NCBI GenBank assembly: GCA_945860285.1
Contig: CAMAQB010000001.1
Location: 62,001-126,000, forward strand
Length of the DNA stretch: 64,000 nt
Direction: 5' to 3'
DNA from: Akkermansia muciniphila
GTDB taxonomy: Bacteria > Verrucomicrobiota > Verrucomicrobiia > Verrucomicrobiales > Akkermansiaceae
The notes under the pieces were generated by a model. The model did no database searches, had not been told where the DNA came from, and saw only the letters and a program-made list of their open reading frames with translations. The position numbers and the translations under genes are program-made. This document shows positions 30,940-43,992 of the stretch, piece after piece. Position 1 is the stretch's first letter. Each line of letters opens with the position of its first letter.

Positions 30940-31548
30940 CTATTTTCGCATCGGCGCGGGAACTTCCACAACCCTCATGCCGGCAGCCTTTGCGGAGTCG
31001 ATCCCTGCGGGAGCATCCTCAAATGCCACACAGCTTTCGGGGGCGACACCCAAACGTCGTGCCGCTTCCAGGTAAATGTCGGGCGCCGGTTTGCCGTTGA
31101 TGACATCATCGGCGGTGATCACCTCGTCAAACCAGTCGGACACACCGACGATGTGCAGGGTTTTTTCAATGACAAATCGCGATCCACCGGTCGCGATGGC
31201 CATGGGCACCTTGCCGCGCAGACTGCGGGCGATTTCGGCGACTTCCTCGATCAACTCGATGCTGTGAAGCTTGCGCAGGAATGCCTCGCGTTTCGAAAGC
31301 GCAACCCGGGCGGGGTCCAGTTTCAATCCGTATTCGGCATTCAAATCCATCACGATGTCCTTGGTGGGCCTGCCACCCATGGCGTAGAAAACATCCTCCG
31401 CGAGCACGTTCGCCGCACCGTAGATCGCCAACGCCTCACACCAGGCCTCGAAATGCGCCGGCATGGTGTCGACGAGCGTGCCATCGCAGTCAAAAATTAC
31501 CGCTGCATAGTCTTGGTAGGGATTGATCAGGGAATCGATAGTCGCCAT
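30940..31548 (-). CDS. HAD-family phosphatase, beta-phosphoglucomutase-like
   Basis: A 202-residue HAD subfamily IA protein. Motif I is IFDCDGTLVDT (Asp20, Asp22). The cap helices include HFEAWCEALAIYG. Motif II is IATGGS, motif III has the lysine in INGKPAPDIYLEA and motif IV is AFEDAPAGIDSAKAAGM. This set fits beta-phosphoglucomutases and sugar-phosphate phosphatases such as YqaB. Phosphatase activity on a hexose or pentose phosphate is likely; the mutase role requires a second active-site Asp, which is the Asp22 seen. The gene is convergent with queG and is separated by six bases. Confidence 0.88.
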   Translation of the reverse strand: MATIDSLINPYQDYAAVIFDCDGTLVDTMPAHFEAWCEALAIYGAANVLAEDVFYAMGGRPTKDIVMDLNAEYGLKLDPARVALSKREAFLRKLHSIELIEEVAEIARSLRGKVPMAIATGGSRFVIEKTLHIVGVSDWFDEVITADDVINGKPAPDIYLEAARRLGVAPESCVAFEDAPAGIDSAKAAGMRVVEVPAPMRK

Positions 31549-31658
31549 GGCAGCAATCGGTCTATCAGAGAATCGAAAGTTGACAAGCGCCTGTTGGGGA
31601 AAATTCTTGAACGGAATCGGGACGGCGCATTTTTTGCTTCTGCAACGCCTCGTTCGTC

Positions 31659-31908
31659 CACGGCGATCAAGCTAGGGAAAGGATTGACAAGAAATGTCGC
31701 AATCAAAAGGCAGGGAACGATCTCCGAGCGTTCCGGTGGGGGACGGTCGCGGATCACCCTAACCTGATCTCCCTTCACCCCACGCCCTCGTGCGCCAAAA
31801 ACGCCGATGAGTCAGGAAGGAAGATGACCCGTCAACCATCCTGCCCCCACCGGATCGCCAGGAACAGCGATCCCTGCCTTTGAGCATCTCCCTGGCTTGA
31901 TCGCCGTG
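31659..31908. mobile_element. MITE-like element, copy 1
   Basis: A 250-bp non-coding element. Its left end CACGGCGATCAAGCTAGGGA is an inverted repeat (19 of 20 bases) of its right end. It is flanked by a perfect 10-bp direct repeat, CTCGTTCGTC, at 31649-31658 and 31909-31918, as expected for a target duplication made by transposition. Internal arms such as CCGGTGGGGG near 31732 and CCCCCACCGG near 31844 also pair, so the whole element could fold into one long imperfect hairpin. A second copy at 42887 is about 95 percent identical (13 differences). No transposase is encoded. The element sits 60 bp upstream of ispH and may affect its expression. Confidence 0.85.
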
Positions 31909-31968
31909 CTCGTTCGTCTCGTTTTCTTTGCTGGCAATTTCCCCGTTCTGGTCTACAAGTGCCCTGTC

Positions 31969-33216
31969 ATGTCGCAAACCACTGATCAAGCCACCAAACG
32001 CTCCCGGGTCAATGTGCGCAGGTCGGATGTGATGGAACTGGTGACCGCAGAGGTCGCGAGCCATTACAAATCATCGATGGTCGAGCGCCTGCGCGACATG
32101 CACGGGGAATTGGTCATTGGCAACACCACCCTGCGTCTCGCCCAGCAGTTCGGTTTTTGTTACGGCGTCGAGCGCGCCATCGATCTCGCCTACGCATCCC
32201 GCAAGGTGTTTCCGGAAAACCGCATTTACCTGATCGGCGAGATCATCCACAACCCGGAGGTCAACCGCCAGTTGGTGGACATGGGCATTGTCTCGCTGCC
32301 CTGGCAGGAGCTGAGCGAGGACTATGACAATCTGAACGCGGATGATGTCGTGATCGTGCCGGCCTTCGGAGCGCCAACTTCCTTCATGGATAAAATCGAT
32401 GCCAAGGGGTGTTACGTAGTTGACACCACTTGCGGCGATGTGATGAAAGTCTGGCGTCGGGTGCGCAGTTACGCGAAGGACAACTTCACCAGCGTCATCC
32501 ACGGCAAAGCGGTTCACGAGGAGACCCGGGCCACGGCATCGCGAGCCCTCGGCGAAAACGGCTGCGGGAATTATCTGATCATCCTGACTCTGGCGGATAC
32601 CGATTTTGTCTGCGAATACATTGCCGGAAAAGTCTCGCGTGAGGAATTCCTAAAGCGGTTCGATGGCGCGATTTCCCCTGGATTCGATCCCGATCTTCAT
32701 TTGGACCGCGTGGGCATCGCCAATCAGACGACCATGTTGAAAAGCGAGACGGAGGAGATCCAGAACCGGATCAAGTCCGCGATTCTGTCGCGCGACGGCG
32801 ACACGGGCCGGTTTCAAATGTTCGACACCATCTGCGGCGCGACCCAGGAGCGTCAGGACGCGCTATTTGACATGCTGCGCAAACCACTGGACCTGCTGCT
32901 GGTGGTGGGAGGATACAACAGTTCCAACACCGCCCATCTGGTGGAGATTGGCGAACAATCATTGCCTACGTTTTTCATCCGCAATGCCGAGTGTCTGGCG
33001 TCGTTGGAGAAGATCATCCATTACGATCTTCACGCGAAGCAGGAGATCGCCAGTTGCTATCCGGAAATCTTTTCCGGAGACAAGAGTGCCGTGATCGGCA
33101 TCACCGCCGGTGCCTCATGCCCTAACAATTTGATCGAAGACACCATAGTAAAGGTCTTTTTGATGCGGGGAATTCCGATAGAGCAGATTCACAACGCGCT
33201 TGTTGCCTCTGCTTGA
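31969..33216 (+). CDS. ispH: 4-hydroxy-3-methylbut-2-enyl diphosphate reductase
   Basis: A 415-residue iron-sulfur enzyme, the last step of the MEP isoprenoid pathway. The first cluster ligand is Cys64 in QQFGFCYGVERAID; the others lie in DTTCGDV and ASCPNN. The segments IIHNPEVNRQL and VVVGGYNSSNTAHLVEI-like (here LLVVGGYNSSNTAHL) are family marks. It is longer than E. coli IspH (about 316 residues) and resembles the long type found in cyanobacteria and plants, with an extended N-terminus and extra middle segment. Start ATG 31969 was preferred to an upstream start at 31897, which would lie inside the MITE. Its last 28 bases overlap rsmD tail to tail. Confidence 0.94.
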   Translation: MSQTTDQATKRSRVNVRRSDVMELVTAEVASHYKSSMVERLRDMHGELVIGNTTLRLAQQFGFCYGVERAIDLAYASRKVFPENRIYLIGEIIHNPEVNRQLVDMGIVSLPWQELSEDYDNLNADDVVIVPAFGAPTSFMDKIDAKGCYVVDTTCGDVMKVWRRVRSYAKDNFTSVIHGKAVHEETRATASRALGENGCGNYLIILTLADTDFVCEYIAGKVSREEFLKRFDGAISPGFDPDLHLDRVGIANQTTMLKSETEEIQNRIKSAILSRDGDTGRFQMFDTICGATQERQDALFDMLRKPLDLLLVVGGYNSSNTAHLVEIGEQSLPTFFIRNAECLASLEKIIHYDLHAKQEIASCYPEIFSGDKSAVIGITAGASCPNNLIEDTIVKVFLMRGIPIEQIHNALVASA

Positions 33217-33752
33217 TAAAGCAGAATCGCCGAGCTTCCATATTGTCGACGGTCAACCAGTTTCCAGTCGGGGTTTTCCGGCGCGGGAGTTTTTGACGAG
33301 ACCTCGGCATACAACATTCCGCCCTTTTCGAGGCGCGGCAGCAACAAGCCGGAGTCGAGGATTTTGCCGACCCATTCGGTGTCGAGAGGATGTTTCACAT
33401 ACGGTGGATCGGCGAAAATCAAATGATAGCGGATCAGGTCTTTTTTCAGGAAAGAAACCACCTCGGAATTGACCACCCGGCCATTTTGCAGTCGTGTCGT
33501 GTTCAGGTTCTCGCGGATGGTTTTGACAGCGTGTGTGCTTTCGTCCACAAAAGTGCATGATCCTGCCCCCCGGCTCAAGGCCTCCAGTCCGAGGGCCCCG
33601 GAGCCGGCGAAGAGATCGGCGACGCATGCGTCGATGACCAGATCGCCGAGTATTGAAAACATTCCCTGGCGCACGAAATCGGTCGTGGGCCGGGCTACGG
33701 CATGGGGTACTTTGATTGTCATCCGGCCCGCTTTTCCCGCAATGATTCTCAT
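33189..33752 (-). CDS. rsmD: 16S rRNA (guanine-N2)-methyltransferase RsmD
   Basis: A 187-residue SAM-dependent methyltransferase that modifies G966 of 16S rRNA. The N-terminus MRIIAGKAGRMTIKVP and RPTTDFVRQGMFSIL are typical. The SAM site is VADLFAGSGALGLEALSRGA starting near 44, and the catalytic motif is DPPY at 115-118. The start codon overlaps the stop of the upstream AsmA-like gene in an ATGA, so translation is coupled. The 3' end overlaps ispH on the opposite strand by 28 bp. Confidence 0.95.
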   Translation of the reverse strand: MRIIAGKAGRMTIKVPHAVARPTTDFVRQGMFSILGDLVIDACVADLFAGSGALGLEALSRGAGSCTFVDESTHAVKTIRENLNTTRLQNGRVVNSEVVSFLKKDLIRYHLIFADPPYVKHPLDTEWVGKILDSGLLLPRLEKGGMLYAEVSSKTPAPENPDWKLVDRRQYGSSAILLYQAEATSAL

Positions 33753-35197
33753 GGCCCGGTGACTGGGGTTTGTTGTTGGTAATGGGCGAAAATTTTCCGC
33801 ACATCCAACGGGGTTTTGCCAAGATCGAGGGAGATGAAAGGTTCTTCGATGCCCCCTCCTAACAGGAAATCGGCAACCCGCCGGTCCTCGTTCATGAAAT
33901 TTCCCATGGCAAATTTTACTCCGGGAATGATTTTCCCCACTCCTTCTTCCAGTACGCCGGCGGTGCTGCGCGAAGCGGTCAAGCGCACGATTCCGGCGAG
34001 CCGGCCATCGGCCAGAACCATGCCGTTGCCGAGCACCGCCATGTCGTCGCCCAGCGCCCGGAATTCAGTGCACTGGAGAATACCACGCGACAGGATCGTG
34101 CGGTATCGGGCAGTGATGAATTCGGCGCGATGGTTCTGCCACTGAGCGGACAGGCCGGTTGCTTGGGCGATCGATTCGCCATTCCATGTTGACGGTGCGA
34201 GCAGGTATCCGCCGATGCGATGGACTGATTCCATGCTGGAGGCGGTCAATGGCGCATCGGGAGTTTTCCACTCGGCGTTTTTTTGCAGTACTACCAACTG
34301 GAATGGCACGCCAGCGACGCGGGCGACCTGGGCTTTTGTTTGCCATGGCAATCCGAGGAAAGGAAATTCTAGCACGGGTGTTTCCAGCAAGGGTGCTTTC
34401 CATTGCAGTGGGATCTGTCGATTTTCTGCGAGGGGATTTTCAAAGGAAGCAATCCGGCCGATGGCCAGATTTCCCGCCGCCTCCTTGCCTTCAAAGGGCA
34501 CTGAGGCCTGAATGGAGGTGGCATCCACCAGCGCGCGGGCCGATTGTGCGTGGAAAATCGTCAACCGGGCATTGTTGACATGCAGCCATGTGGTTGGTTT
34601 TTGGATTGCGCTTGCTTGTGCCGATGGCTGTTGTGGAGGGGCAGCGGCGGGCGGGGTTGGAGGTGATGCCTGCGGCTTGGTTTCAGCAACCGCGCTCGTT
34701 GGTTCGGCGGCGGGAACACCCGGTGCTTTCGGCGCGGGCTCGGGCAGCAATGGAAGATTCGGTGTGTTTCGCCGCAATAAATCCACCAGCAGTTCAACGC
34801 TGATCATTAACTCCGGCGAGTCGACAGTGACGCGGGTGACATCGCGACGACCCTTGACCAGTTCGCCCCAAACCGGTTGCAGGGAAATTTTTTTCACGTG
34901 CAACAGCGGCGTGGGTATGAGTCCGCGAAGGGGCGCGGGCTGCTGCACGGCCAGATCCTCCAGCCAGAACTCTCCACCCGGCATCCAACCGGCGCGGACA
35001 AATGACGTTTCCAGGCCGATTTTTTTGCTGACTTTTGCGGAAATCCACCCGCAGCACCAGGGAATGCGCAACAGCGCGTTGCTCATTAGAAAAAACAGCA
35101 GCGGCAGCAAAAACAGACAGAGGGCGAGCCGGCGGGGCCATTTGCGGCCTCGCTTGCCTTGTTGCGCGGCTTCCACTGATTCCGTCGATTCATGCAT
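33749..35197 (-). CDS. AsmA-like membrane-anchored protein
   Basis: A 482-residue protein with a single N-terminal membrane helix (LALCLFLLPLLFFLMSNALL, about 25-44). A first beta-rich domain follows (GLETSFVRAGWMPGGEFWLEDLAV, PLLHVKKISLQPVW), with a pattern like AsmA/TamB N-terminal regions. Residues around 150-205 form a Pro/Ala/Gln-rich linker, then a second beta-rich domain ends with LLGGGIEEPFISLDLGKTPLDV. The architecture suggests an envelope protein that spans from the inner membrane into the periplasm, perhaps in lipid transfer, but similarity is by pattern only. It overlaps rsmD by four bases and may be cotranscribed with the exported protein gene upstream. Confidence 0.7.
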   Translation of the reverse strand: MHESTESVEAAQQGKRGRKWPRRLALCLFLLPLLFFLMSNALLRIPWCCGWISAKVSKKIGLETSFVRAGWMPGGEFWLEDLAVQQPAPLRGLIPTPLLHVKKISLQPVWGELVKGRRDVTRVTVDSPELMISVELLVDLLRRNTPNLPLLPEPAPKAPGVPAAEPTSAVAETKPQASPPTPPAAAPPQQPSAQASAIQKPTTWLHVNNARLTIFHAQSARALVDATSIQASVPFEGKEAAGNLAIGRIASFENPLAENRQIPLQWKAPLLETPVLEFPFLGLPWQTKAQVARVAGVPFQLVVLQKNAEWKTPDAPLTASSMESVHRIGGYLLAPSTWNGESIAQATGLSAQWQNHRAEFITARYRTILSRGILQCTEFRALGDDMAVLGNGMVLADGRLAGIVRLTASRSTAGVLEEGVGKIIPGVKFAMGNFMNEDRRVADFLLGGGIEEPFISLDLGKTPLDVRKIFAHYQQQTPVTGP

Positions 35198-35215
35198 GCG
35201 ACAATCGAAAACCGA

Positions 35216-36004
35216 TTATTTTTTCTTTGGTTTTGCTGGTGCCGGGGCGGTTTTTTTCGGAGCGGTTGCAGGAGCGGCTTTTGGCGGAGTGACGGGTTCT
35301 TTGGGAGCGGTCAACGCAACCCTGACCACTATGCTTTTGTCCAGCAACCGCGTTCCGGTCGAGGTGATCTCCTGGGCGCGATAGACGAGCAGCGCGTATT
35401 TGCCGTCGCTTGTTTTGCCCAGTGCGTAATTCTCCTTCACTTTGCTCAAACTCGTTTCTTCATCATACCGCCATTCCTGTCCCTTCCAGCCGCCGAGGAT
35501 GCTCATCGGGTCGGCCTCGATGTCGTCCAGTCGCTTGAGGATGCCGTTCGACGACTTCCAGTTGTCTTCCTTCGCGGAAAACCGCAGGGTGGAAAGTGGT
35601 GCCGCCGCGCCAGTGCCGATGATGTTCCAGCGATCGTTGGATGAGGGGCGCAGCAGCAGTCCGACTTCCTGGGCGACCTTGTATTCGCGTTTGTTCCAGA
35701 GTTCGATGTAAGCGGCGTATTCCTCCTTGGTGAGTCCGAGGTTTTCGTGAAAGGGCAGGGGCACGCCTGGTTTGGATGCCTTGGAGTATTCCGCAAACCA
35801 TTTGGGATTTTTTGTGGCGCTTTGTTCGACCTTGCTGATATATTTTTCGATGTCTGGCGGCGGCACCACAATCACAATTTCGGCCTTTGTGGGTTCGTTG
35901 GGTTTTAGAATCCCCTTGAACAACAGAGGTGCTTCCTGCGCGCGGGCGGTCAAGCAAAGGACCAAAGTCACTAGGAAATTGCAAGCGGTTTTTTTCATCA
36001 TCAT
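35216..36004 (-). CDS. Exported protein of unknown function with a Pro/Lys-rich tail
   Basis: A 262-residue protein with a signal peptide (KKTACNFLVTLVLCLTARAQ); three consecutive ATGs at 36004, 36001 and 35998 are possible starts. An upstream in-frame start at 36154 was rejected because it would put 50 residues before the signal. The mature part has a conserved-looking segment PFHENLGLTKEEYAAYIELWNKR and a C-terminal Ala/Pro/Lys tail (PKKTAPAPAKPKKK), which may bind a polyanion or membrane surface. No family was recognised. It lies 18 bp upstream of the AsmA-like gene and is divergent from the DUF1080 gene across 194 bp that should hold both promoters. Confidence 0.72.
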   Translation of the reverse strand: MMMKKTACNFLVTLVLCLTARAQEAPLLFKGILKPNEPTKAEIVIVVPPPDIEKYISKVEQSATKNPKWFAEYSKASKPGVPLPFHENLGLTKEEYAAYIELWNKREYKVAQEVGLLLRPSSNDRWNIIGTGAAAPLSTLRFSAKEDNWKSSNGILKRLDDIEADPMSILGGWKGQEWRYDEETSLSKVKENYALGKTSDGKYALLVYRAQEITSTGTRLLDKSIVVRVALTAPKEPVTPPKAAPATAPKKTAPAPAKPKKK

Positions 36005-36198
36005 AACACCTGTCACAGCGGACGGGGCCACTGTGGTGCAGGATTCTTTACAACTCAAGACACAATTCACACGAAAGATCATTGGTGTCCGCAGGCGGGC
36101 TGGTGTCCGCATCGGTTTAAACTCCCATCGACAATTCCATGGAAATTTTTTCACTATTGCATTGCAAATTCTCCACCGCGCTTTTTACTGAACGTGCA

Positions 36199-36993
36199 AT
36201 GAAACAATCTTTTTATATCTCAGTTTGTTCCCTCGGTGTCATGGCAGGCATTGTTCTTGCCGATGGGTTTGGGGTGAAGTCGGGCAATCCCAAACTTCCC
36301 GATTCTCCCTACGAAGTTCATGACGGTACGCGGCCGCAACCACGGGTGGTGGAAAATGCCGGAGCAGTGGTAGTGAAGCCGCCCGCCGATGCGAAAGTGT
36401 TGTTCGACGGCAAGAATCTTGATGCCTGGTCATCGGGCAAGGACGCGGCTGCCTGGCAGATCGTGGACGGTGCCATGGTTGCCGCAAAAACGGATGTTTC
36501 GACAAAAGAATCATTCGGTGCGATCCAGTTGCATGCCGAGTGGCGCTGTCCCGCCGGTCGGAAGGTGCACGACCAAGGCGGCGGCAACAGCGGGATTTTC
36601 CTGATGGGTCTCTATGAAGTGCAGGTCCTGCAAAGCCACAACAACAAAACCTATCCGGACGGCCAGGCCGCGTCGCTGTACGGGCAGTGTCCGCCGCTGG
36701 TGAATGCGACGACCAAACAGGGCGACTGGCAGAGTTACGACATCATCTTCACTCCGCCTGTTTATGATGGGGAAACCGTCAAGGAACCGGCCCGGGTGAC
36801 AATTCTTCACAACGGCATCGTGGTGCAGAACAACAAAGCATACCTCGGTCCTACTCAGCATAAGACATTGGCGAGTTATCCGAAAACACACCCGGCTACG
36901 GCACCGATCCGCCTCCAGTTCCACGGCGACTCCATGGAATACCGCAACTTCTGGGTCCGGCCCCTCGGCACATACGATCAAACGACCCCCTGA
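36199..36993 (+). CDS. Exported DUF1080 (3-keto-disaccharide hydrolase-like) protein
   Basis: A 264-residue protein with a signal peptide (MKQSFYISVCSLGVMAGIVLA). From about residue 75 it is a DUF1080 concanavalin-like jelly roll: KVLFDGKNLDAWSSG, AIQLHAEWRCPAGR, GGGNSGIFLMGLYEVQVLQS and PIRLQFHGDSMEYRNFWVRPL. The family is abundant in Planctomycetes and Verrucomicrobia and includes enzymes that cleave 3-keto-glycosides. Direct evidence for that activity here is lacking. ATG 36199 puts the signal peptide first; a start at 36139 would add 20 residues. The gene is 41 bp before the large lipoprotein gene and may share its transcript. Confidence 0.88.
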   Translation: MKQSFYISVCSLGVMAGIVLADGFGVKSGNPKLPDSPYEVHDGTRPQPRVVENAGAVVVKPPADAKVLFDGKNLDAWSSGKDAAAWQIVDGAMVAAKTDVSTKESFGAIQLHAEWRCPAGRKVHDQGGGNSGIFLMGLYEVQVLQSHNNKTYPDGQAASLYGQCPPLVNATTKQGDWQSYDIIFTPPVYDGETVKEPARVTILHNGIVVQNNKAYLGPTQHKTLASYPKTHPATAPIRLQFHGDSMEYRNFWVRPLGTYDQTTP

Positions 36994-37034
36994 TTTTTTC
37001 CCTGTACCCGATCCACCAAAGTTCCCCACATCTC

Positions 37035-39275
37035 ATGAAACATCAGTCGATCCTCCTGACCGCTCCGCTGGCTCTGGCACTCTGCATCTCTTCCTGTCAG
37101 AAAAAGCCGGTCGTCGCTCCGGTCAACAATCCTGACCCGCGCGTCAAGGCTGTCGGACCGGCATCCCCGGATCAGCCTGCGACTCCTCCTGTCGTGGCGA
37201 ATCCGACCGCCCGTGCGGCGAAACTCGGCTTCGCTCAGATGCTGAGCAAGGACACCGAGACTCTCGTGCTGGTGCAGAATGGAGCCGAAGTTGCCAAGCG
37301 CTTCAAGGGTTCGAAACTCTGGTCGTTCATCAAGGAACAGAACCCCGCACTCGGTGAGACAGGAAACGGCGCGGAAGCCGATGGGGCCGATGTGACGGAA
37401 GCGGTGACTCCCATGGATTTCATGGGTCGGGAGTTTTTCATCGCCACCGGCAAAGCCAGCAGCGTGCAGGCGGGCAATCTTGTGACCTTCTCCAATCGGA
37501 CTAACTATTTCCAGTTCCGCAGCACCTTGAAAATGTTGATCACCTCGATGACCGGTGATACAGGCATGGCGGAGGTGGAGCCAGCCAACCCGCTGGCCTC
37601 GATGGCCGAATTAGTCAAAGACCCCGAAAGCGGTGTCAAGCTGATGGAGAAAATGGACATGCCGCCGGTGTTCGTTGGTTTCAAGACCACTTCGGAAAAC
37701 AAGGAAAAAGTCGGCAAAGCGCTCACCGGGATGGTGGCGAATCTCGCTTCGGCGGGATCTTCGGTCGAGGAAATCAGCTTCGAGGTCGATGGCAGGGCCT
37801 TTGCGGGCAATCAACTCTCCGGCAAAAAGCTCGCGGAGGATCTTCAGGCGGATGAATCGGCGATCGAAGAAATGGACGAGCAATTCGGTGCCGAAACAAG
37901 GAAGGATCTTCTCAAGGTTCTAGCGAAAAAAAATCTGATTGCCGTAAGTGGCATGGTCAATGACTACGCCGTGTTGTTCATCGGCACGAACAAGGAAGAT
38001 TTGAAGTTCGCCGCAAGCCCTGCCGAGTCCATGGCGGGGTCGGCCGCGCTTGCATTTGTGGACCCCTACTTGGAAAAAAATCCGGTGGCGGTGATGTACA
38101 GTGACAAAGGGGTGCTTCAGTCTCTTGCCGTTGGCAGCGGAATCAGCAATCTCGCCCACGCCGTTCGCGACGCCATTTCCGGAAACGGCAAGGTCGACAC
38201 CCGGGAGATTGAAGCACTACTCGATGTCGTCGCCGAGCGTGAAAAAGACCTGCTGGGCATGAACAAGTTCAGCAACTTTGGCGCGGTGGCCCTGCTCGAC
38301 GAGGGATTCAAGTTGGAAACTTTCGGCGGTGGCAACCTTCCCAATCTCATGGCCGAGACATCCAACAAACTTGGTGGGCTGGGAGAGGCCCCGGATGTGG
38401 CGATGTTTGCCAACTGGACCTCCAACGAAGCATACGGCACGAAGGTGAAATCCTATCTGGAGGCGATTGTCGAAACCTCTTACTCGATCGCCAAGAATGT
38501 CAGCACCTGGGATGTGAAGGAGCAGGAGTCGTTCAAACAGTTCAAGGGCGGATTTGCCATGTTTGAAGAGAATTTCAGCAAGGATGCCGCGCAAGTGTGG
38601 GACACGCTCAGTGGCAATGTTGGCGAAGGACTCGGCAATGAAACCGCTCTGGTTGTCGATCTCAACGGCGAAATGCCGGCCATCCCCAACGTCCCGCAGG
38701 AACTTGTCAAGGACGGCAAGTTTCCGAGAATTTCCTGGGTGAAACCTGTCGTGAATCGCGCCAAGTTGGCGGGCGCTTGGGAAAAGTTGAACAGCTCGGG
38801 CGAAAACATCATGAAGCAAGTCAGCAAAATGATGGAGAAGGAGCAGGCGATGCCCAAGCCGATGAAATCGGAGAAAAACGATCTCACGACATGGTTTTTC
38901 TCGCTGCCGCTGATGACCGAGGACTTCTCGCCTTCGATCACACTCAATGATAAATGGTTCATCGCCTCCACTTCGAAACTCCACGCGGTTTCCCTGGTCG
39001 GGCTGGCGGATAAATCCCAAAAGGGGAAAACCGGCGCCCATCTATCCATGGATTTCGACGCGCTGCGCAAATGCGCCAATCACTGGCTCGAGTCGGTCGG
39101 CAAAAACAAGGAGGTCATTTTCAAGGACAACACCGACGCAGCAGATGATTTTTCGGCAAATCAGGAGATGTTCAAGAGTGGCATCGAGGCGTTCAGCGAT
39201 CTCGATCAATTGACCATCCACACCCGCCGGGAGGGAGGCACGGAACGCAGTTCACTTCATCTCAAAACGCAGTAA
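37035..39275 (+). CDS. Large lipoprotein of unknown function
   Basis: A 746-residue predicted lipoprotein. The signal peptide KHQSILLTAPLALALCISSC ends in a lipobox at Cys21, followed by a Pro-rich linker to about residue 60. The rest is a mixed alpha/beta soluble protein. It has long acidic and lysine-rich helical segments and repeated themes such as ETLVLVQNGAEVAKRFKG, NLIAVSGMVNDYAVLFIGTNKED and WFFSLPLMTEDFSPSITLNDKWFIAS. The last resembles DUF3352-like proteins, in which internal halves repeat a beta-sheet unit, but this is only an impression. It is probably attached to a membrane by the modified cysteine. Confidence 0.75.
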   Translation: MKHQSILLTAPLALALCISSCQKKPVVAPVNNPDPRVKAVGPASPDQPATPPVVANPTARAAKLGFAQMLSKDTETLVLVQNGAEVAKRFKGSKLWSFIKEQNPALGETGNGAEADGADVTEAVTPMDFMGREFFIATGKASSVQAGNLVTFSNRTNYFQFRSTLKMLITSMTGDTGMAEVEPANPLASMAELVKDPESGVKLMEKMDMPPVFVGFKTTSENKEKVGKALTGMVANLASAGSSVEEISFEVDGRAFAGNQLSGKKLAEDLQADESAIEEMDEQFGAETRKDLLKVLAKKNLIAVSGMVNDYAVLFIGTNKEDLKFAASPAESMAGSAALAFVDPYLEKNPVAVMYSDKGVLQSLAVGSGISNLAHAVRDAISGNGKVDTREIEALLDVVAEREKDLLGMNKFSNFGAVALLDEGFKLETFGGGNLPNLMAETSNKLGGLGEAPDVAMFANWTSNEAYGTKVKSYLEAIVETSYSIAKNVSTWDVKEQESFKQFKGGFAMFEENFSKDAAQVWDTLSGNVGEGLGNETALVVDLNGEMPAIPNVPQELVKDGKFPRISWVKPVVNRAKLAGAWEKLNSSGENIMKQVSKMMEKEQAMPKPMKSEKNDLTTWFFSLPLMTEDFSPSITLNDKWFIASTSKLHAVSLVGLADKSQKGKTGAHLSMDFDALRKCANHWLESVGKNKEVIFKDNTDAADDFSANQEMFKSGIEAFSDLDQLTIHTRREGGTERSSLHLKTQ

Positions 39276-39321
39276 CACCGCTGTCTTCGCGCGAGCATTC
39301 CGCGTCGGCGCCGGCAACATG

Positions 39322-40059
39322 TTAGAGCAGCGACGCTGACTCGTGGTCGAGGTGGAAACTGGTGTGCTCGTGGTTCTGCAGATAACTCGCGCTGATCTGG
39401 CTTGAAACCGGTCCGCGCAGCGCTTTTCTGACAATGGCTGCCTTTGCAGTGCCGAATGCCAGCAGGGCGATGTGCCGGGCTTCCATGATCGTGCCGCAGC
39501 CCATGGTGATCGCATGGGTGGGCACATGGTCCAGATCCCCGAACGCGGGTGCGGCATCCTCGCGGGTGAGTTGATCGAGAAGAATCCGCCGCGTTCTGCA
39601 ATCCGGAGGCGATCCCGGTTCATTGAAGCCGATATGACCCGTGCGGCCGATGCCGAGAATTTGATAGTCGATGCCGCCATGCACGGTGATCAATTCCTCA
39701 TAGCGTTTGCAGTAATCCGCCAGTTCCAGACTCGGAACCCTCGTGCCCGGTATGTGGATGTTGGCGGCGGGGATGTCGATGTGGTCGAACAAATGACGGT
39801 GCATGAAATTCCAATACGACTCCGGATGGCTGAGGTCGATTCCCTGGTACTCATCCAAGTTGAAGGTGCAAACCTGACGAAAGGAAAGTCCCTCCTGGTG
39901 ATGCAGGCGCACCAGTTCCTCATACACGCCGATCGGAGTCGAACCGGTGGCCAGGCCAAGCACGGCGTGGGGTTTGGCACGGATCAATTCGGCGATTTCG
40001 CGGGCCACTTTTTTATTGGCCGTTTCCCGGGTCGCATGGATGTGCAGCGTGATGCTCAT
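39322..40059 (-). CDS. nagB: Glucosamine-6-phosphate deaminase
   Basis: A 245-residue enzyme that converts glucosamine 6-phosphate to fructose 6-phosphate and ammonia. Catalytic residues align with the E. coli enzyme: Asp69 in FNLDEY (E. coli Asp72), His142 and Glu147 in GHIGFNEPGS (E. coli His143 and Glu148). The phosphate-binding loop is GLATGSTP at 35-42. It is somewhat shorter than E. coli NagB at the C-terminus and lacks part of the allosteric region. Start ATG 40059 begins the conserved fold; an upstream start at 40188 was rejected. No nagA or transporter gene is next to it. Confidence 0.93.
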   Translation of the reverse strand: MSITLHIHATRETANKKVAREIAELIRAKPHAVLGLATGSTPIGVYEELVRLHHQEGLSFRQVCTFNLDEYQGIDLSHPESYWNFMHRHLFDHIDIPAANIHIPGTRVPSLELADYCKRYEELITVHGGIDYQILGIGRTGHIGFNEPGSPPDCRTRRILLDQLTREDAAPAFGDLDHVPTHAITMGCGTIMEARHIALLAFGTAKAAIVRKALRGPVSSQISASYLQNHEHTSFHLDHESASLL

Positions 40060-40147
40060 GTTTTTGTATGTCTTCAATCCTCCCCAACTGATCTGAACAA
40101 TCAAGCAGGATTTTGATTCGTGCCTACTGTGCAGCTGATGCTGTGAA

Positions 40148-40681
40148 TTAACGCATGGAATTTTTCCACAGTATGACCTCACCGGCAAGCCCTGATTTTT
40201 CCAATAGCACGGCGATGTCGGCGGCTTCCCGTTCCGGACAGGTCGGGTCGCTGGGCAACTGCGGTCGGACCCGGCATACGATGGCCCAAAGTGCCCAGGC
40301 CCGGGCGGATCGAATTTCTCTCCGCAGACCGCGGATGCGGCAGGCCTGATGCTGGAAGCTCAGCCGGGGGTTACCCGGAAAGTCATCACTGTGGTGGTTC
40401 TCGACAATCCAGCGGAATGCGTCATAAGGCAGCGGCCAGGCCAGCAGGTCCGGTTCGTCGCCATTCAGGTCGGCATACAGCGCTCTTGTCAGCGCCAACA
40501 GCGCCCTGCCCGCATGACCGGAGCGCCAGAGCTGCTGAGCGTAACAAAGGGCGGAAAAATAAAACCCGCCATCGCGACGATGCTCGTGACGTCGCAATTC
40601 ACGATAGTCGAGCTCGATCCGCAGTTCCGGAAGTAGAGGGCATGCGCTGCGCATCTGCGGACTGTTCACAACGGCAAGCAT
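40148..40681 (-). CDS. Conserved-looking small protein of unknown function
   Basis: A 177-residue protein starting at ATG 40681 (MLAVVNSPQMRSACPLLPEL). It is helical and rich in Arg, Trp and Leu (HEHRRDGGFYFSALCYAQQLW, AGRALLALTRALYADL, YDAFRWIVENHHSDDFPGNPRLSFQHQA). There is no signal peptide or membrane segment. The coding-like composition and the tight divergent arrangement with the transglutaminase gene (starts only 49 bp apart) support a real gene. The short shared region must contain both promoters. No family was recognised and the frame continues upstream, so the start is moderately certain. Confidence 0.65.
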   Translation of the reverse strand: MLAVVNSPQMRSACPLLPELRIELDYRELRRHEHRRDGGFYFSALCYAQQLWRSGHAGRALLALTRALYADLNGDEPDLLAWPLPYDAFRWIVENHHSDDFPGNPRLSFQHQACRIRGLRREIRSARAWALWAIVCRVRPQLPSDPTCPEREAADIAVLLEKSGLAGEVILWKNSMR

Positions 40682-40730
40682 GCTTTTTCCGCGCTTGCTT
40701 GCAAGGAGATCGTGTGCCATCGTGGCGAGA

Positions 40731-42881
40731 ATGCACGCAGTGGAAACACCTGGTGTCGCGCCGCTTTTTCCCCGCTGGTTGCTGGGTGCCGCACTGATTT
40801 TTTGGGGCTTCACTTCGGACATTCCTTTTATCGGTCTGACGATGGCTGTCGTCATCGAATCCCGGCAGTGGCTTAACATCCGTTGGAACTTCGGTGACAA
40901 GGCCTACGTGAGGGCGTGGAGCCTGTCGGTGTCTGCGATGCTTGTTACCGGTTTGCTTCTCTGGATGGATGGTCTGCAACCGGAGACGGTGAGAAAATTC
41001 ACCTCATGGATGCCGTTGTTTCTTTTCAGCGTCCAGTTCACCCAGTCCTACGGGATCGAAGGCAAACTTCCTCTGCATACCTTTTCCTACTTTTCGCGGA
41101 AAAAGTTCCTGTTTGATCAAAAAATGGGAATTGCCAGCCGTCCGCTTTCGCTTGCCTTCACTCCGGTATACTTTGTGATCTGTCTGTTGTTTTCGGCAAC
41201 GGGACTGAACGCCTATGCCCTGTGGTTTTTTCCCGCTTTGTTGCTGCTCACGGTGTGGTGTTTGTGGGGTGAGTGCTGCAATCACGGCAGACGCAAGGCA
41301 GTGCTGGGTGTGGCGCTTGCGATGTTGGTGGGTCTGGCGGTGATCGCCCAATGGGGATTGCACAACGGCATCGAGTTGTTGACGGGACAAAGGATGGAAT
41401 ACTATGATTCGAAAGAGGACGGAACGCTCTGGCAGCGAAGCAATACGAGAATCGGCCAGGTCGGCCAGATCAAACAATCGTCGCGCATTTTTTGGAGGCT
41501 CAAAACCGAACAGGGTCCTGCACCGGTGCTGTTGCGCACCGCTTCCTACAACCGCTATTTTTCCAGTGGCCACTGGCGATACGATCCTCCTCTCGACACC
41601 GCGCAGGAGGAGGACTTCAACGGCTTGTTTGTAACCGGCCGGGCCGATCGCACGCTGGATGCAACAGTCGACGAGTTCCTTTATCGCTCCGTCGGCGAGG
41701 TCCCCGCCGGACAGGAAGCCCGCGATGATTTGCCGCGCTACTCGATGCGCGGGGGGGTGAAAGCCGCATCGCTGCTGCCTCTGCCGGGGGCGCTCCACAC
41801 CATCCATCTCTCGGCACAGGATTTGGAAAAAAACAGCGTCGGCAGCATCCGCATTACGCCCCGTCATGCGGTTCTGGATGCCAAGGTGCGCTGGAATAGT
41901 GAATTCGACAGCGACGGCCCGGCGTTTGCGAATGAGGGCGGAGACATATCGACCGATCTCGCCGTGCCGGTTCAGGAACGCGTGGTGCTGCGCGAAATCG
42001 CCGCTTCTCTTGCCCTGGACACCCTGAGTTTTGAAGAAAAAATCGCCGCGTTGCGGAGGTATTTTTCGCGGAACTTCACCTATTCCACCTATCTGACAAT
42101 CAACTCACAATTGAACCGCAAATGGAATGCCGAACGAAGCAAGGGAAAAAACCGTACTATCAGCGGACGCGATAGCGCGCTGGCACAGTTTCTGTTGGAG
42201 GAAAAAACCGGCCACTGTGAATACTTCGCCACGGCGACAACCCTCCTCTTGCGGAGCGCTGGATTGAAAGCGCGTTACTGCGTGGGATTTGCCGTGCAGG
42301 AAAAAAATCCCCAAAGCGGCGAGTTGATTCTCCGCGGCACTCACGGTCATGCGTGGTGCCGGGCCTGGAACGACAGCACACGCCGCTGGGTTGATGTCGA
42401 TCTAACACCTCCGACCTGTTTCCTCGTGGATCAGCCGGAAACAGGTTGGCAACGCGGTGTGGTGGACTTTTTCCAGCGCTTGCGCGAGGACTTCACGGTA
42501 TGGCGGACGCTGCCGCAAAACCAACGGACTGTGATGCTGTCGTTTTCCTTTTTCGGTCTGGCCCTGCTGGCATGGATTGGGCGCTCGCTCTGGAAAACCC
42601 GGACACGCGCCGTTCAAAACGTCCCGCAGCAAGTGTTTCCCCGGCTCAGCACGCCCTTGTCGGATTTGGATCGCTGGCTCAACAAACAGATAGGCCCGCG
42701 GCCCCCCGGCATGCCCTACGGCCTGTGGGTGGGTCGTTTGAGTGACACTGTTGATCCCCATTTGGTCGCGGAGGCCGTGGCGGTTCACAATAGACTTCGC
42801 TATGACCCCGTTCCCCTTGAGCCGGATCTTCGCGAACGACTTCGTTTGCTTTGTCGCGATTTGATAGCATCATTGCGATAG
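40731..42881 (+). CDS. Membrane protein with a transglutaminase-like protease domain
   Basis: A 716-residue protein. The N-terminal half has about five to six membrane segments (RWLLGAALIFWGFTSDIPFI, VSAMLVTGLLLWMDG, YALWFFPALLLLTVWCLWG and VALAMLVGLAVIAQWG). A periplasmic transglutaminase-like domain follows with Cys496 in EEKTGHCEYFATA, His540 in GTHGHAWCRAW and Asp555 in RWVDVDLTPP, the full Cys-His-Asp triad. One more membrane helix near 600 (VMLSFSFFGLALLAWIG) precedes a soluble tail. This TgpA-like layout is common in bacteria. The stop codon TAG overlaps the left target duplication of MITE copy 2, so the insertion sits directly at the 3' end. Confidence 0.88.
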   Translation: MHAVETPGVAPLFPRWLLGAALIFWGFTSDIPFIGLTMAVVIESRQWLNIRWNFGDKAYVRAWSLSVSAMLVTGLLLWMDGLQPETVRKFTSWMPLFLFSVQFTQSYGIEGKLPLHTFSYFSRKKFLFDQKMGIASRPLSLAFTPVYFVICLLFSATGLNAYALWFFPALLLLTVWCLWGECCNHGRRKAVLGVALAMLVGLAVIAQWGLHNGIELLTGQRMEYYDSKEDGTLWQRSNTRIGQVGQIKQSSRIFWRLKTEQGPAPVLLRTASYNRYFSSGHWRYDPPLDTAQEEDFNGLFVTGRADRTLDATVDEFLYRSVGEVPAGQEARDDLPRYSMRGGVKAASLLPLPGALHTIHLSAQDLEKNSVGSIRITPRHAVLDAKVRWNSEFDSDGPAFANEGGDISTDLAVPVQERVVLREIAASLALDTLSFEEKIAALRRYFSRNFTYSTYLTINSQLNRKWNAERSKGKNRTISGRDSALAQFLLEEKTGHCEYFATATTLLLRSAGLKARYCVGFAVQEKNPQSGELILRGTHGHAWCRAWNDSTRRWVDVDLTPPTCFLVDQPETGWQRGVVDFFQRLREDFTVWRTLPQNQRTVMLSFSFFGLALLAWIGRSLWKTRTRAVQNVPQQVFPRLSTPLSDLDRWLNKQIGPRPPGMPYGLWVGRLSDTVDPHLVAEAVAVHNRLRYDPVPLEPDLRERLRLLCRDLIASLR

Positions 42882-42886
42882 GCTTG

Positions 42887-43136
42887 CACGGCGATCAAGC
42901 TAGGGAAAGGATTGACAAGAAATGTCGCAAACAAAAGGCAGGGAACGATCTCCGAGCGTTCCGGTGGGGGACGGTCGCGGATCACCCTAACCTGATCTAC
43001 CTTCACCCCACGCTCTCCTGTGCCAACAACGCTGGTGAGTTAGGAAGGATGATTACCCGTCAACCATCCTGCCCCCACCGGATCGCTAGGGACAGCGATC
43101 CCTGCCTTTGAGCATCTCCCTGGCTTGATCGCCGTG
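42887..43136. mobile_element. MITE-like element, copy 2
   Basis: A second 250-bp copy of the element at 31659, about 95 percent identical and in the same orientation. The ends carry the same 20-bp inverted repeats. The flanks are GATAGGCTTG (42877-42886) and GATAGGCTCG (43137-43146), a 10-bp direct repeat with one mismatch, as expected for an older target duplication. The left duplication contains the stop codon of the transglutaminase gene, and murI starts 58 bp beyond the right end, so the element is a spacer between the two genes. It may act as a terminator-like hairpin or provide an outward promoter; neither is proven. Confidence 0.84.
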
Positions 43137-43194
43137 GATAGGCTCGCGGCTTTTCCGGCTTGGCGCCTTCGTCGATCTGGTATAAGTAGGGCGC

Positions 43195-43992
43195 GTGAAA
43201 GATGGTGCGCTGGGGATTTTTGATTCGGGAGTGGGTGGCTTGACCGTGGTGCGCGCGGTGCAGGAACTGCTGCCGTCGGAAAACATCGTCTATCTGGGCG
43301 ATACCGCACGGGTGCCCTATGGCTCGAAGTCCCCGGAAACGATCCGGCGTTTTGCCGATGAAGATGCCCGCCATCTGCTCGGCAGGGATGTCAAGGCGAT
43401 CGTCGTGGCCTGCAATACCGCAACCGCTCACGCACTGCCTTTTTTGCAGAAACAATATCACATCCCGGTGATCGGTGTGATCGAAGCCGGCGTCGAAGCG
43501 GTGCTGGCGGATCGCACAGCCATGCGCATCGGCATCATCGCCACGCGCGGAACGATCGCCTCGCACGCCTATCAGCACGCCCTCGCCCTGCGCCGCACGG
43601 GAATGATGATTGTCGAGCAATCGACCCCCTTGCTGGTGCCGCTGATCGAGGAAAACTGGCTCGATCACCCGGCCACCACAATGATCCTGCAAAGCTACCT
43701 GCAACCGATGTTGGACAAGGGCATCGACACCCTGCTGCTGGCCTGCACTCATTACCCGTTGCTGGTGCCGCTGTTGAAAAAGATGATCGGTGCGGATGTG
43801 CGGATCGTTGACTCTGCCAGCACCTGTGCGTTGCACTTGCGCAATGAACTCGAACGCCTCGACATGCTGGCATCCCAGGATCGACAGGGGATCCTGCGGA
43901 TCGGCCTGACCGACCTCTCGGACCAGTTCGAAATTCTTGCCAGACAGTTTCTCCACAAATCACCCCCTCGCATCGAACGGGTGGAGTTGTAG
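43195..43992 (+). CDS. murI: Glutamate racemase
   Basis: A 265-residue cofactor-independent racemase that provides D-glutamate for peptidoglycan. Both catalytic cysteines are present: Cys73 in VVACNTAT and Cys184 in LACTHYPLL. IFDSGVGGLTV at the N-terminus, LGDTARVPYGSKS and the C-terminal VDSA motif complete the family pattern. The start is GTG 43195, which gives MKDGALGIFDSG. It lies just after MITE copy 2, and its stop is eight bases from the convergent PEP-CTERM gene. Confidence 0.96.
   Translation: MKDGALGIFDSGVGGLTVVRAVQELLPSENIVYLGDTARVPYGSKSPETIRRFADEDARHLLGRDVKAIVVACNTATAHALPFLQKQYHIPVIGVIEAGVEAVLADRTAMRIGIIATRGTIASHAYQHALALRRTGMMIVEQSTPLLVPLIEENWLDHPATTMILQSYLQPMLDKGIDTLLLACTHYPLLVPLLKKMIGADVRIVDSASTCALHLRNELERLDMLASQDRQGILRIGLTDLSDQFEILARQFLHKSPPRIERVEL

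What the first reader, a model, noticed from the sequence alone, without database searches (positions are those of the whole stretch)
31649..31918. MITE-like element with perfect 10-bp target duplication (copy 1)
The 250-bp element has 20-bp terminal inverted repeats (CACGGCGATCAAGCTAGGGA, 19 of 20 matching) and a perfect 10-bp flanking repeat (CTCGTTCGTC). It is non-coding and about 95 percent identical to a second copy 11 kb away. This is strong evidence of movement in trans by an unknown transposase. Its entire length is imperfectly self-complementary. It lies between a HAD gene and ispH, and it may alter ispH expression.
Basis: seen in the sequence. Interest (0 to 1): 0.78.

Follow-up and report, generated by a model that had tools for sequence, protein, structure and literature searches.

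The report
ISAs1-driven MITE carrying a REP pair
A 250-base non-coding jumping element sits beside the gene ispH; its mover can now be named (an ISAs1-family transposase in the same genome with identical ends), and its inside is a pair of hairpin repeats that also occur on their own, so the element looks like one kind of repeat riding on the ends of another.

Summary
In detail: a 250-bp element at 31659-31908, 20-bp terminal inverted repeats (19/20), perfect 10-bp duplication, a 95% identical copy at 42887-43136. The genome holds about 25 two-ended relatives; 19 of 23 testable ones have 8-10 of 10 matching flanking bases. The transposase is not unknown: an intact 1276-bp ISAs1-family insertion sequence in the same genome has the identical 20-bp ends, and a 68% identical transposase in a Verrucomicrobiaceae MAG is bounded by the same ends plus a perfect 10-bp duplication. 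Five congeners with the same HAD-ispH arrangement lack the element. So it is an ISAs1-type MITE. Beyond the finding, its body is an inverted pair of a covarying REP-like hairpin that also occurs as free singles, pairs and tandem arrays in this genome, and as pairs without ISAs1 ends in a congener. Single-unit MITE bodies form one clade inside the free-pair diversity, which suggests one capture. Some elements carry two or three tandem units between one pair of ends. No RAYT gene lies near these REPs in this genome or the congener. A conserved promoter-like block of ispH lies intact downstream of the insertion, so an effect on ispH is unproven.

The parts
31649..31658 (.). target site duplication, left copy (CTCGTTCGTC)
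31659..31908 (+). MITE copy 1, 250 bp
31659..31678 (+). left 20-bp terminal inverted repeat, identical to both ends of the ISAs1 element on contig 106
31709..31741 (+). REP hairpin 1 (GGCAGGGAACGATCTCCGAGCGTTCCGGTGGGG)
   Evidence: C1:93709-93741 + minus 62000; covariation
31742..31844 (+). spacer of the REP doublet (start-to-start 138 bp, as in free doublets)
31845..31878 (-). REP hairpin 2 (GGCAGGGATCGCTGTTCCTGGCGATCCGGTGGGG on the minus strand)
   Evidence: C1:93845-93878 -
31889..31908 (-). right 20-bp terminal inverted repeat (19/20 to the left one)
31909..31918 (.). target site duplication, right copy (CTCGTTCGTC)
31924..31959 (+). block conserved upstream of ispH in congeners (TTCTTTGCTGGCA...17...TACAAG), undisturbed by the insertion; promoter role inferred
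30940..31548 (-). HAD-family hydrolase gene, divergent neighbour (named from its sequence)
31969..33216 (+). ispH-like gene (named from its sequence), 60 bp downstream of the MITE
42887..43136 (+). MITE copy 2, 250 bp, TSD GATAGGCTTG (42877-42886) / GATAGGCTCG (43137-43146), just upstream of a murI-like gene

Best explanation
The element is a non-autonomous ISAs1-family MITE. Its 20-bp ends are the ends of a resident ISAs1 insertion sequence, whose 388-aa DDE transposase (inferred to act in trans) cuts at those ends and inserts the DNA into staggered cuts, leaving a 10-bp duplication. Its body is not a deletion remnant of the IS; it is a REP doublet, two inverted copies of an extragenic hairpin repeat about 138 bp apart, that was already dispersed in this lineage and became enclosed between ISAs1 ends, probably once. 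Since then the composite has spread as a unit, and some copies have gained or lost tandem REP-doublet units between the ends. Shown: ends, duplications, copy number, presence of the IS, the REP family inside and outside the element, the clade of MITE bodies, empty sites in congeners. Inferred: trans action, capture order, unit gain and loss by recombination.
For: Own genome: 84 matches to the element and 94 TIR hits against 1 in the reversed-pattern control. Of 23 testable two-ended REP-body elements, 19 have at least 8/10 matching flanks and 12 have 10/10. IS at C106:4639-5914, 1276 bp, with CACGGCGATCAAGCTAGGGA at both ends, encodes a 388-aa protein hitting NF033564 ISAs1 transposase at E 6e-108 and PF13808/PF01609. 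Further IS ends at contig ends C9, C68 and C161, one with a different left subterminus, mean more than one IS copy. L159, Verrucomicrobiaceae MAG JAIXQH010000008.1, holds a 68% identical transposase bounded by the same TIRs and a perfect 10-bp duplication GCCTGATCCA. Outside the first ~31 and last ~26 bp the MITE has no blastn similarity to the IS. REPs: 95 strict matches in the genome, control 0; stem covariation 28 double-changed cells against 9.8 +/- 2.4 shuffled, 0/500. Free doublets of the same spacing in this genome and in congener G009 without TIRs. All 13 single-unit MITE bodies plus the terminal unit of the three-unit element form one 100/100 clade nested among free doublets, G009 outside. 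Five congeners have HAD-ispH spacers without the element.
Against: No transposition was observed. The intact IS on C106 has flanks that do not match (4/10), so the resident IS itself shows no duplication; the assembly is a fragmented 162-contig draft and may be misjoined there. The MITE-body clade owes part of its long stem to a distinctive right-arm REP. Which came first, single-unit or multi-unit elements, is not settled.
Confidence: 0.85

Rival explanations
1. Ordinary ISAs1 MITE whose internal palindromes arose within the element; the free REP doublets are decayed MITEs that lost their ends, so no capture took place.
For: Some arrays still keep one TIR (C40:28581), so loss of ends happens.
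Against: Congener G009 has doublets of the same spacing with different, covarying stems and no TIRs; free doublets are more diverse and MITE bodies are one nested clade; solitary REPs exist.
Confidence: 0.12
2. The element is primarily a REPIN or BIME moved by a RAYT (Y1) transposase, and the ISAs1-like ends are incidental.
For: The genome has 16 Y1_Tnp matches; the body has REPIN architecture.
Against: No RAYT in this genome or in G009 lies within 1.5 kb of this REP. The boundaries of copies with 10-bp duplications are the ISAs1 ends, and HUH transposases of the IS200/IS605 type do not leave such duplications (established knowledge).
Confidence: 0.03
3. The element is kept for a function as a regulatory or RNA element of neighbouring genes such as ispH, and mobility is secondary.
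For: Intergenic, strongly structured; copy 2 also lies just upstream of a gene start.
Against: Absent from the same spacer in five congeners; no sigma-70-like promoter or terminator found; conserved ispH upstream block unbroken.
Confidence: 0.05

Closest known systems
ISAs1-family insertion sequences (and their internally deleted derivatives)
   Same: TIR sequence identical to the resident ISAs1 IS; 10-bp duplication, in line with the 8-10 bp known for the family (own knowledge of ISfinder); the same genome also has a true 332-bp IS deletion derivative (C21:27453-27784, 88% to the IS 3' end)
   Different: no transposase remnant in the body; body is a REP doublet
REPINs / REP doublets (Bertels and Rainey 2011, PMC3116915) and GTAG/CGTC REP dimers (PMC3733652)
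   Same: inverted pair of REP hairpins forming one long hairpin, plus singles and tandem clusters; PMC3733652 reports REP dimers sitting inside longer palindromes in A. variabilis and H. neapolitanus
   Different: no GTAG or CGTC tag (feet GGCAG/GGYGG), no linked RAYT found, long (about 100 bp) spacer, and here enclosed by DDE-transposase ends with target duplications
BrickBuilt and MITE464/PgRS of Porphyromonas gingivalis (PMC4596501)
   Same: tandem repeats enclosed in a MITE whose ends match a resident IS
   Different: 23- or 41-nt minisatellites and IS5-type ends, against 182-184-bp REP-doublet units and ISAs1 ends here
BOX elements of Streptococcus pneumoniae (PMC3049150)
   Same: modular: fixed ends around a variable number of internal tandem modules, with TIRs and duplications
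   Different: unrelated sequence; boxB modules are not reported there as REP hairpins with a free existence

Membership tests
MITE (bacterial) | short, non-coding, terminal inverted repeats | tested here: met
   250 bp, TIR 19/20, no gene inside
MITE (bacterial) | multiple dispersed copies with constant-length target duplications | tested here: met
   19 of 23 testable copies at least 8/10, 12 of them 10/10, always length 10
MITE (bacterial) | ends shared with an autonomous element in the same genome | tested here: met
   ISAs1 IS at C106:4639-5914 with identical TIR
MITE (bacterial) | mobilised in trans by that transposase | not testable with these tools
   needs an assay
ISAs1 family (the autonomous partner) | transposase matches the ISAs1 family model | tested here: met
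   NF033564 360.7 bits against cut-off 70; PF13808 and PF01609 over cut-off
ISAs1 family (the autonomous partner) | 8-10 bp target duplication | tested here: met
   10/10 at the relative IS L159; not seen at the C106 copy, flanks 4/10
REPIN / REP doublet (the body) | two inverted REP hairpins at fixed spacing, dispersed in the genome | tested here: met
REPIN / REP doublet (the body) | REPs flank or lie by a RAYT gene | tested here: not met
   none of 16 Y1_Tnp loci in the genome, none of 4 in G009; one lone REP about 0.85 kb from a RAYT in G015. Hence called REP-like, not filed as a RAYT-driven REPIN
REPIN / REP doublet (the body) | GTAG or CGTC tag at the hairpin foot | tested here: not met
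   feet are GGCAG and GGYGG

The most novel reading that the evidence does not exclude
A REP family without a recognisable RAYT of its own is being spread by a DDE transposase: ISAs1 ends act as a reusable carrier that encloses extragenic palindromic repeats, moves them with 10-bp duplications, and lets the enclosed repeats expand to tandem units between one pair of ends. The congeners' ISAs1-ended MITEs with other bodies (157-377 bp in G003 and G007, about 300 bp with CCACAGATTAC repeats in this genome) would be further cases.
Probability: 0.3. Interest if true: 0.6.

Novelty: new variant of a known kind. Interest (0 to 1): 0.42.

Why it matters
How REP repeats without a linked RAYT transposase spread is open (PMC3733652 makes the point for CGTC REPs). 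An element in which a REP doublet is carried by defined DDE-transposase ends, with free relatives in the same genome as controls, makes one route testable. It also gives a usable, named MITE/IS pair for this verrucomicrobial lineage and explains many of the draft genome's contig breaks.

Tried and rejected
Rfam: nothing in 31000-43500 except a sub-threshold CRISPR-repeat match inside the HAD gene, taken as chance. RAYT flanks carrying the REP: none in this genome. First unit tree was wrong because palindromic units were not oriented: two false clusters; repeated with orientation by the spacer. G003 palindromes (CGTCCCNNNGGGACG) as an independent second capture: most of the sites seen lie in or look like that species' own ISAs1-ended MITEs, so no claim is made. 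Solved structures of the transposase: none by sequence. Structure prediction was not used, as the family is clear from profiles.

Full report
Observation. The element, its ends and its duplication are as described. It is 250 bp (31659-31908), the ends match 19/20, and CTCGTTCGTC flanks it on both sides. Copy 2 at 42887-43136 is 95% identical and has its own 10-bp duplication (9/10). Chance is excluded by shuffles and by register-matched controls. The folded strand is far more stable than shuffles (z = -8.7).

Genome context. The window is part of a 3.70-Mb, 162-contig draft genome (98% complete). The element has 84 blast-level matches there. The 20-bp end occurs 94 times with up to 3 mismatches, against 1 for the reversed pattern. 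Pairing the ends gives 25 two-ended elements with this body. Leaving out the two halves of the tandem dimer on contig 10, 23 can be tested for duplications: 12 match 10/10, 4 match 9/10, 3 match 8/10. Many copies sit at contig ends, so true copy number is higher.

The mover. One pair of identical ends, 1276 bp apart on contig 106, encloses a 388-aa open frame. The protein matches the NCBIfam ISAs1 transposase model at E 6e-108 and the Pfam pair DDE_Tnp_1_assoc plus DDE_Tnp_1. Truncated IS ends at contigs 9, 68 and 161 show that it is multicopy. The C106 copy lacks matching flanks, so the duplication was sought elsewhere: a 68% identical transposase in a Verrucomicrobiaceae MAG (JAIXQH010000008.1) has the same 20-bp ends and a perfect 10-bp duplication GCCTGATCCA. 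That makes the ISAs1 transposase the best candidate for moving the MITE; trans action itself is inferred.

Empty sites. In five congeners (G001, G002, G004, G006, G007; ispH 78-82% identical) the HAD gene and ispH are divergent neighbours with a spacer lacking the element. The spacers are too diverged to show the single 10-mer. A block TTCTTTGYTGG... upstream of ispH is conserved and lies intact at 31924-31959, between the MITE and the start codon at 31969. So the insertion need not disturb ispH.

The body. Outside the ends the MITE has no blastn similarity to the IS. It consists of two inverted copies of a hairpin, GGCAG-(9-bp stem, often one mismatch)-TCC-stem-GGYGG, 138 bp apart start to start. 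The hairpin occurs 95 times by a strict pattern in this genome and the reversed pattern never; a looser pattern finds 111 here and 18 in congener G009. Stems differ between copies with compensating changes (28 double-changed cells, 9.8 expected from shuffles, 0/500; slid registers fall away). These are REP-like by build. They occur singly, as doublets of the same spacing, and as tandem arrays of 182-184 bp, mostly without ISAs1 ends. No Y1/RAYT gene in this genome or G009 lies within 1.5 kb of one, and the GTAG and CGTC tags are absent, so they are not filed as RAYT-driven REPINs.

Order of events. On a tree of 46 oriented doublets the G009 doublets fall outside, this genome's free doublets are diverse, and all 13 single-unit MITE bodies plus the last unit of the three-unit MITE form one 100/100 clade nested among them. 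Inner units of multi-unit elements group with free doublets. The simplest reading is one enclosure of a REP doublet or array between ISAs1 ends, followed by spread; unit number then changed. Part of the clade's stem rests on its special right-arm hairpin, and bootstrap values had not settled.

Multi-unit and dimer forms. Elements of 430, 458, 460 and 613 bp carry two or three units between one pair of ends and have perfect 10-bp duplications; a fifth, 447 bp, has 8/10. On contig 10 two complete MITEs separated by 10 bp share one outer duplication (GACAGGTTGG), as expected if a tandem dimer moved as a unit. On contig 60 the spacer of such a dimer equals its right flank.

Known relatives. ISAs1 gives the ends; REP dimers and REPINs (PMC3116915, PMC3733652) give the plan of the body; BrickBuilt (PMC4596501) and BOX (PMC3049150) are precedents for tandem modules in MITEs. 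I found no paper in the held library describing an ISAs1 MITE with a REP doublet as its body; the library is partial.

Verdict. An ordinary mobile-element type with a named mover, made more interesting by its composite body. New variant of a known kind.

Noticed in passing
G000 C106:4639-5914 (L048 1040-2315): The only intact ISAs1 IS interrupts a carbonic-anhydrase-like gene, and its two flanks do not match; an assembly misjoin or IS-IS recombination is possible.
   Followed up: partly
G000 C21:11759-12050, C140:4530-4831, C70:664-1019: A second MITE family (292-356 bp) with similar ISAs1-type ends and 10-bp duplications, whose body carries CCACAGATTAC-CAGATT repeats.
   Followed up: partly
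G003 (L034, L041, L044) and G007 (L037): Congeners have their own ISAs1-ended MITEs (157-377 bp) with unrelated, palindrome-rich bodies, most with 9-10 of 10 duplication matches.
   Followed up: partly
G000 C10:54802-55313 and C60:1-409: Tandem MITE dimers joined by 10 bp; the C10 dimer is flanked by one shared 10-bp duplication, suggesting it moved as a unit.
   Followed up: partly
L118, L119, L121 (G000 C39, C112, C107): Three Y1/RAYT loci share a different palindrome (GGCCYGGARGGCC...ATTAGCCGGTGG) at the same place in or by the gene.
   Followed up: no
G015 C3, L141 2704-2734: One REP of the same type lies about 0.85 kb from a RAYT gene in another genus of the family, with a guanylate-kinase-like gene between.
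   Followed up: partly
G000 C143:5228-5845 and C151:4172-4846: Parts of a second, diverged ISAs1-type transposase (37-39% identity) at contig ends.
   Followed up: no
window 42877-43146: Copy 2 lies between a transglutaminase-like membrane protein gene, whose stop codon is in the duplication, and a murI-like gene.
   Followed up: no
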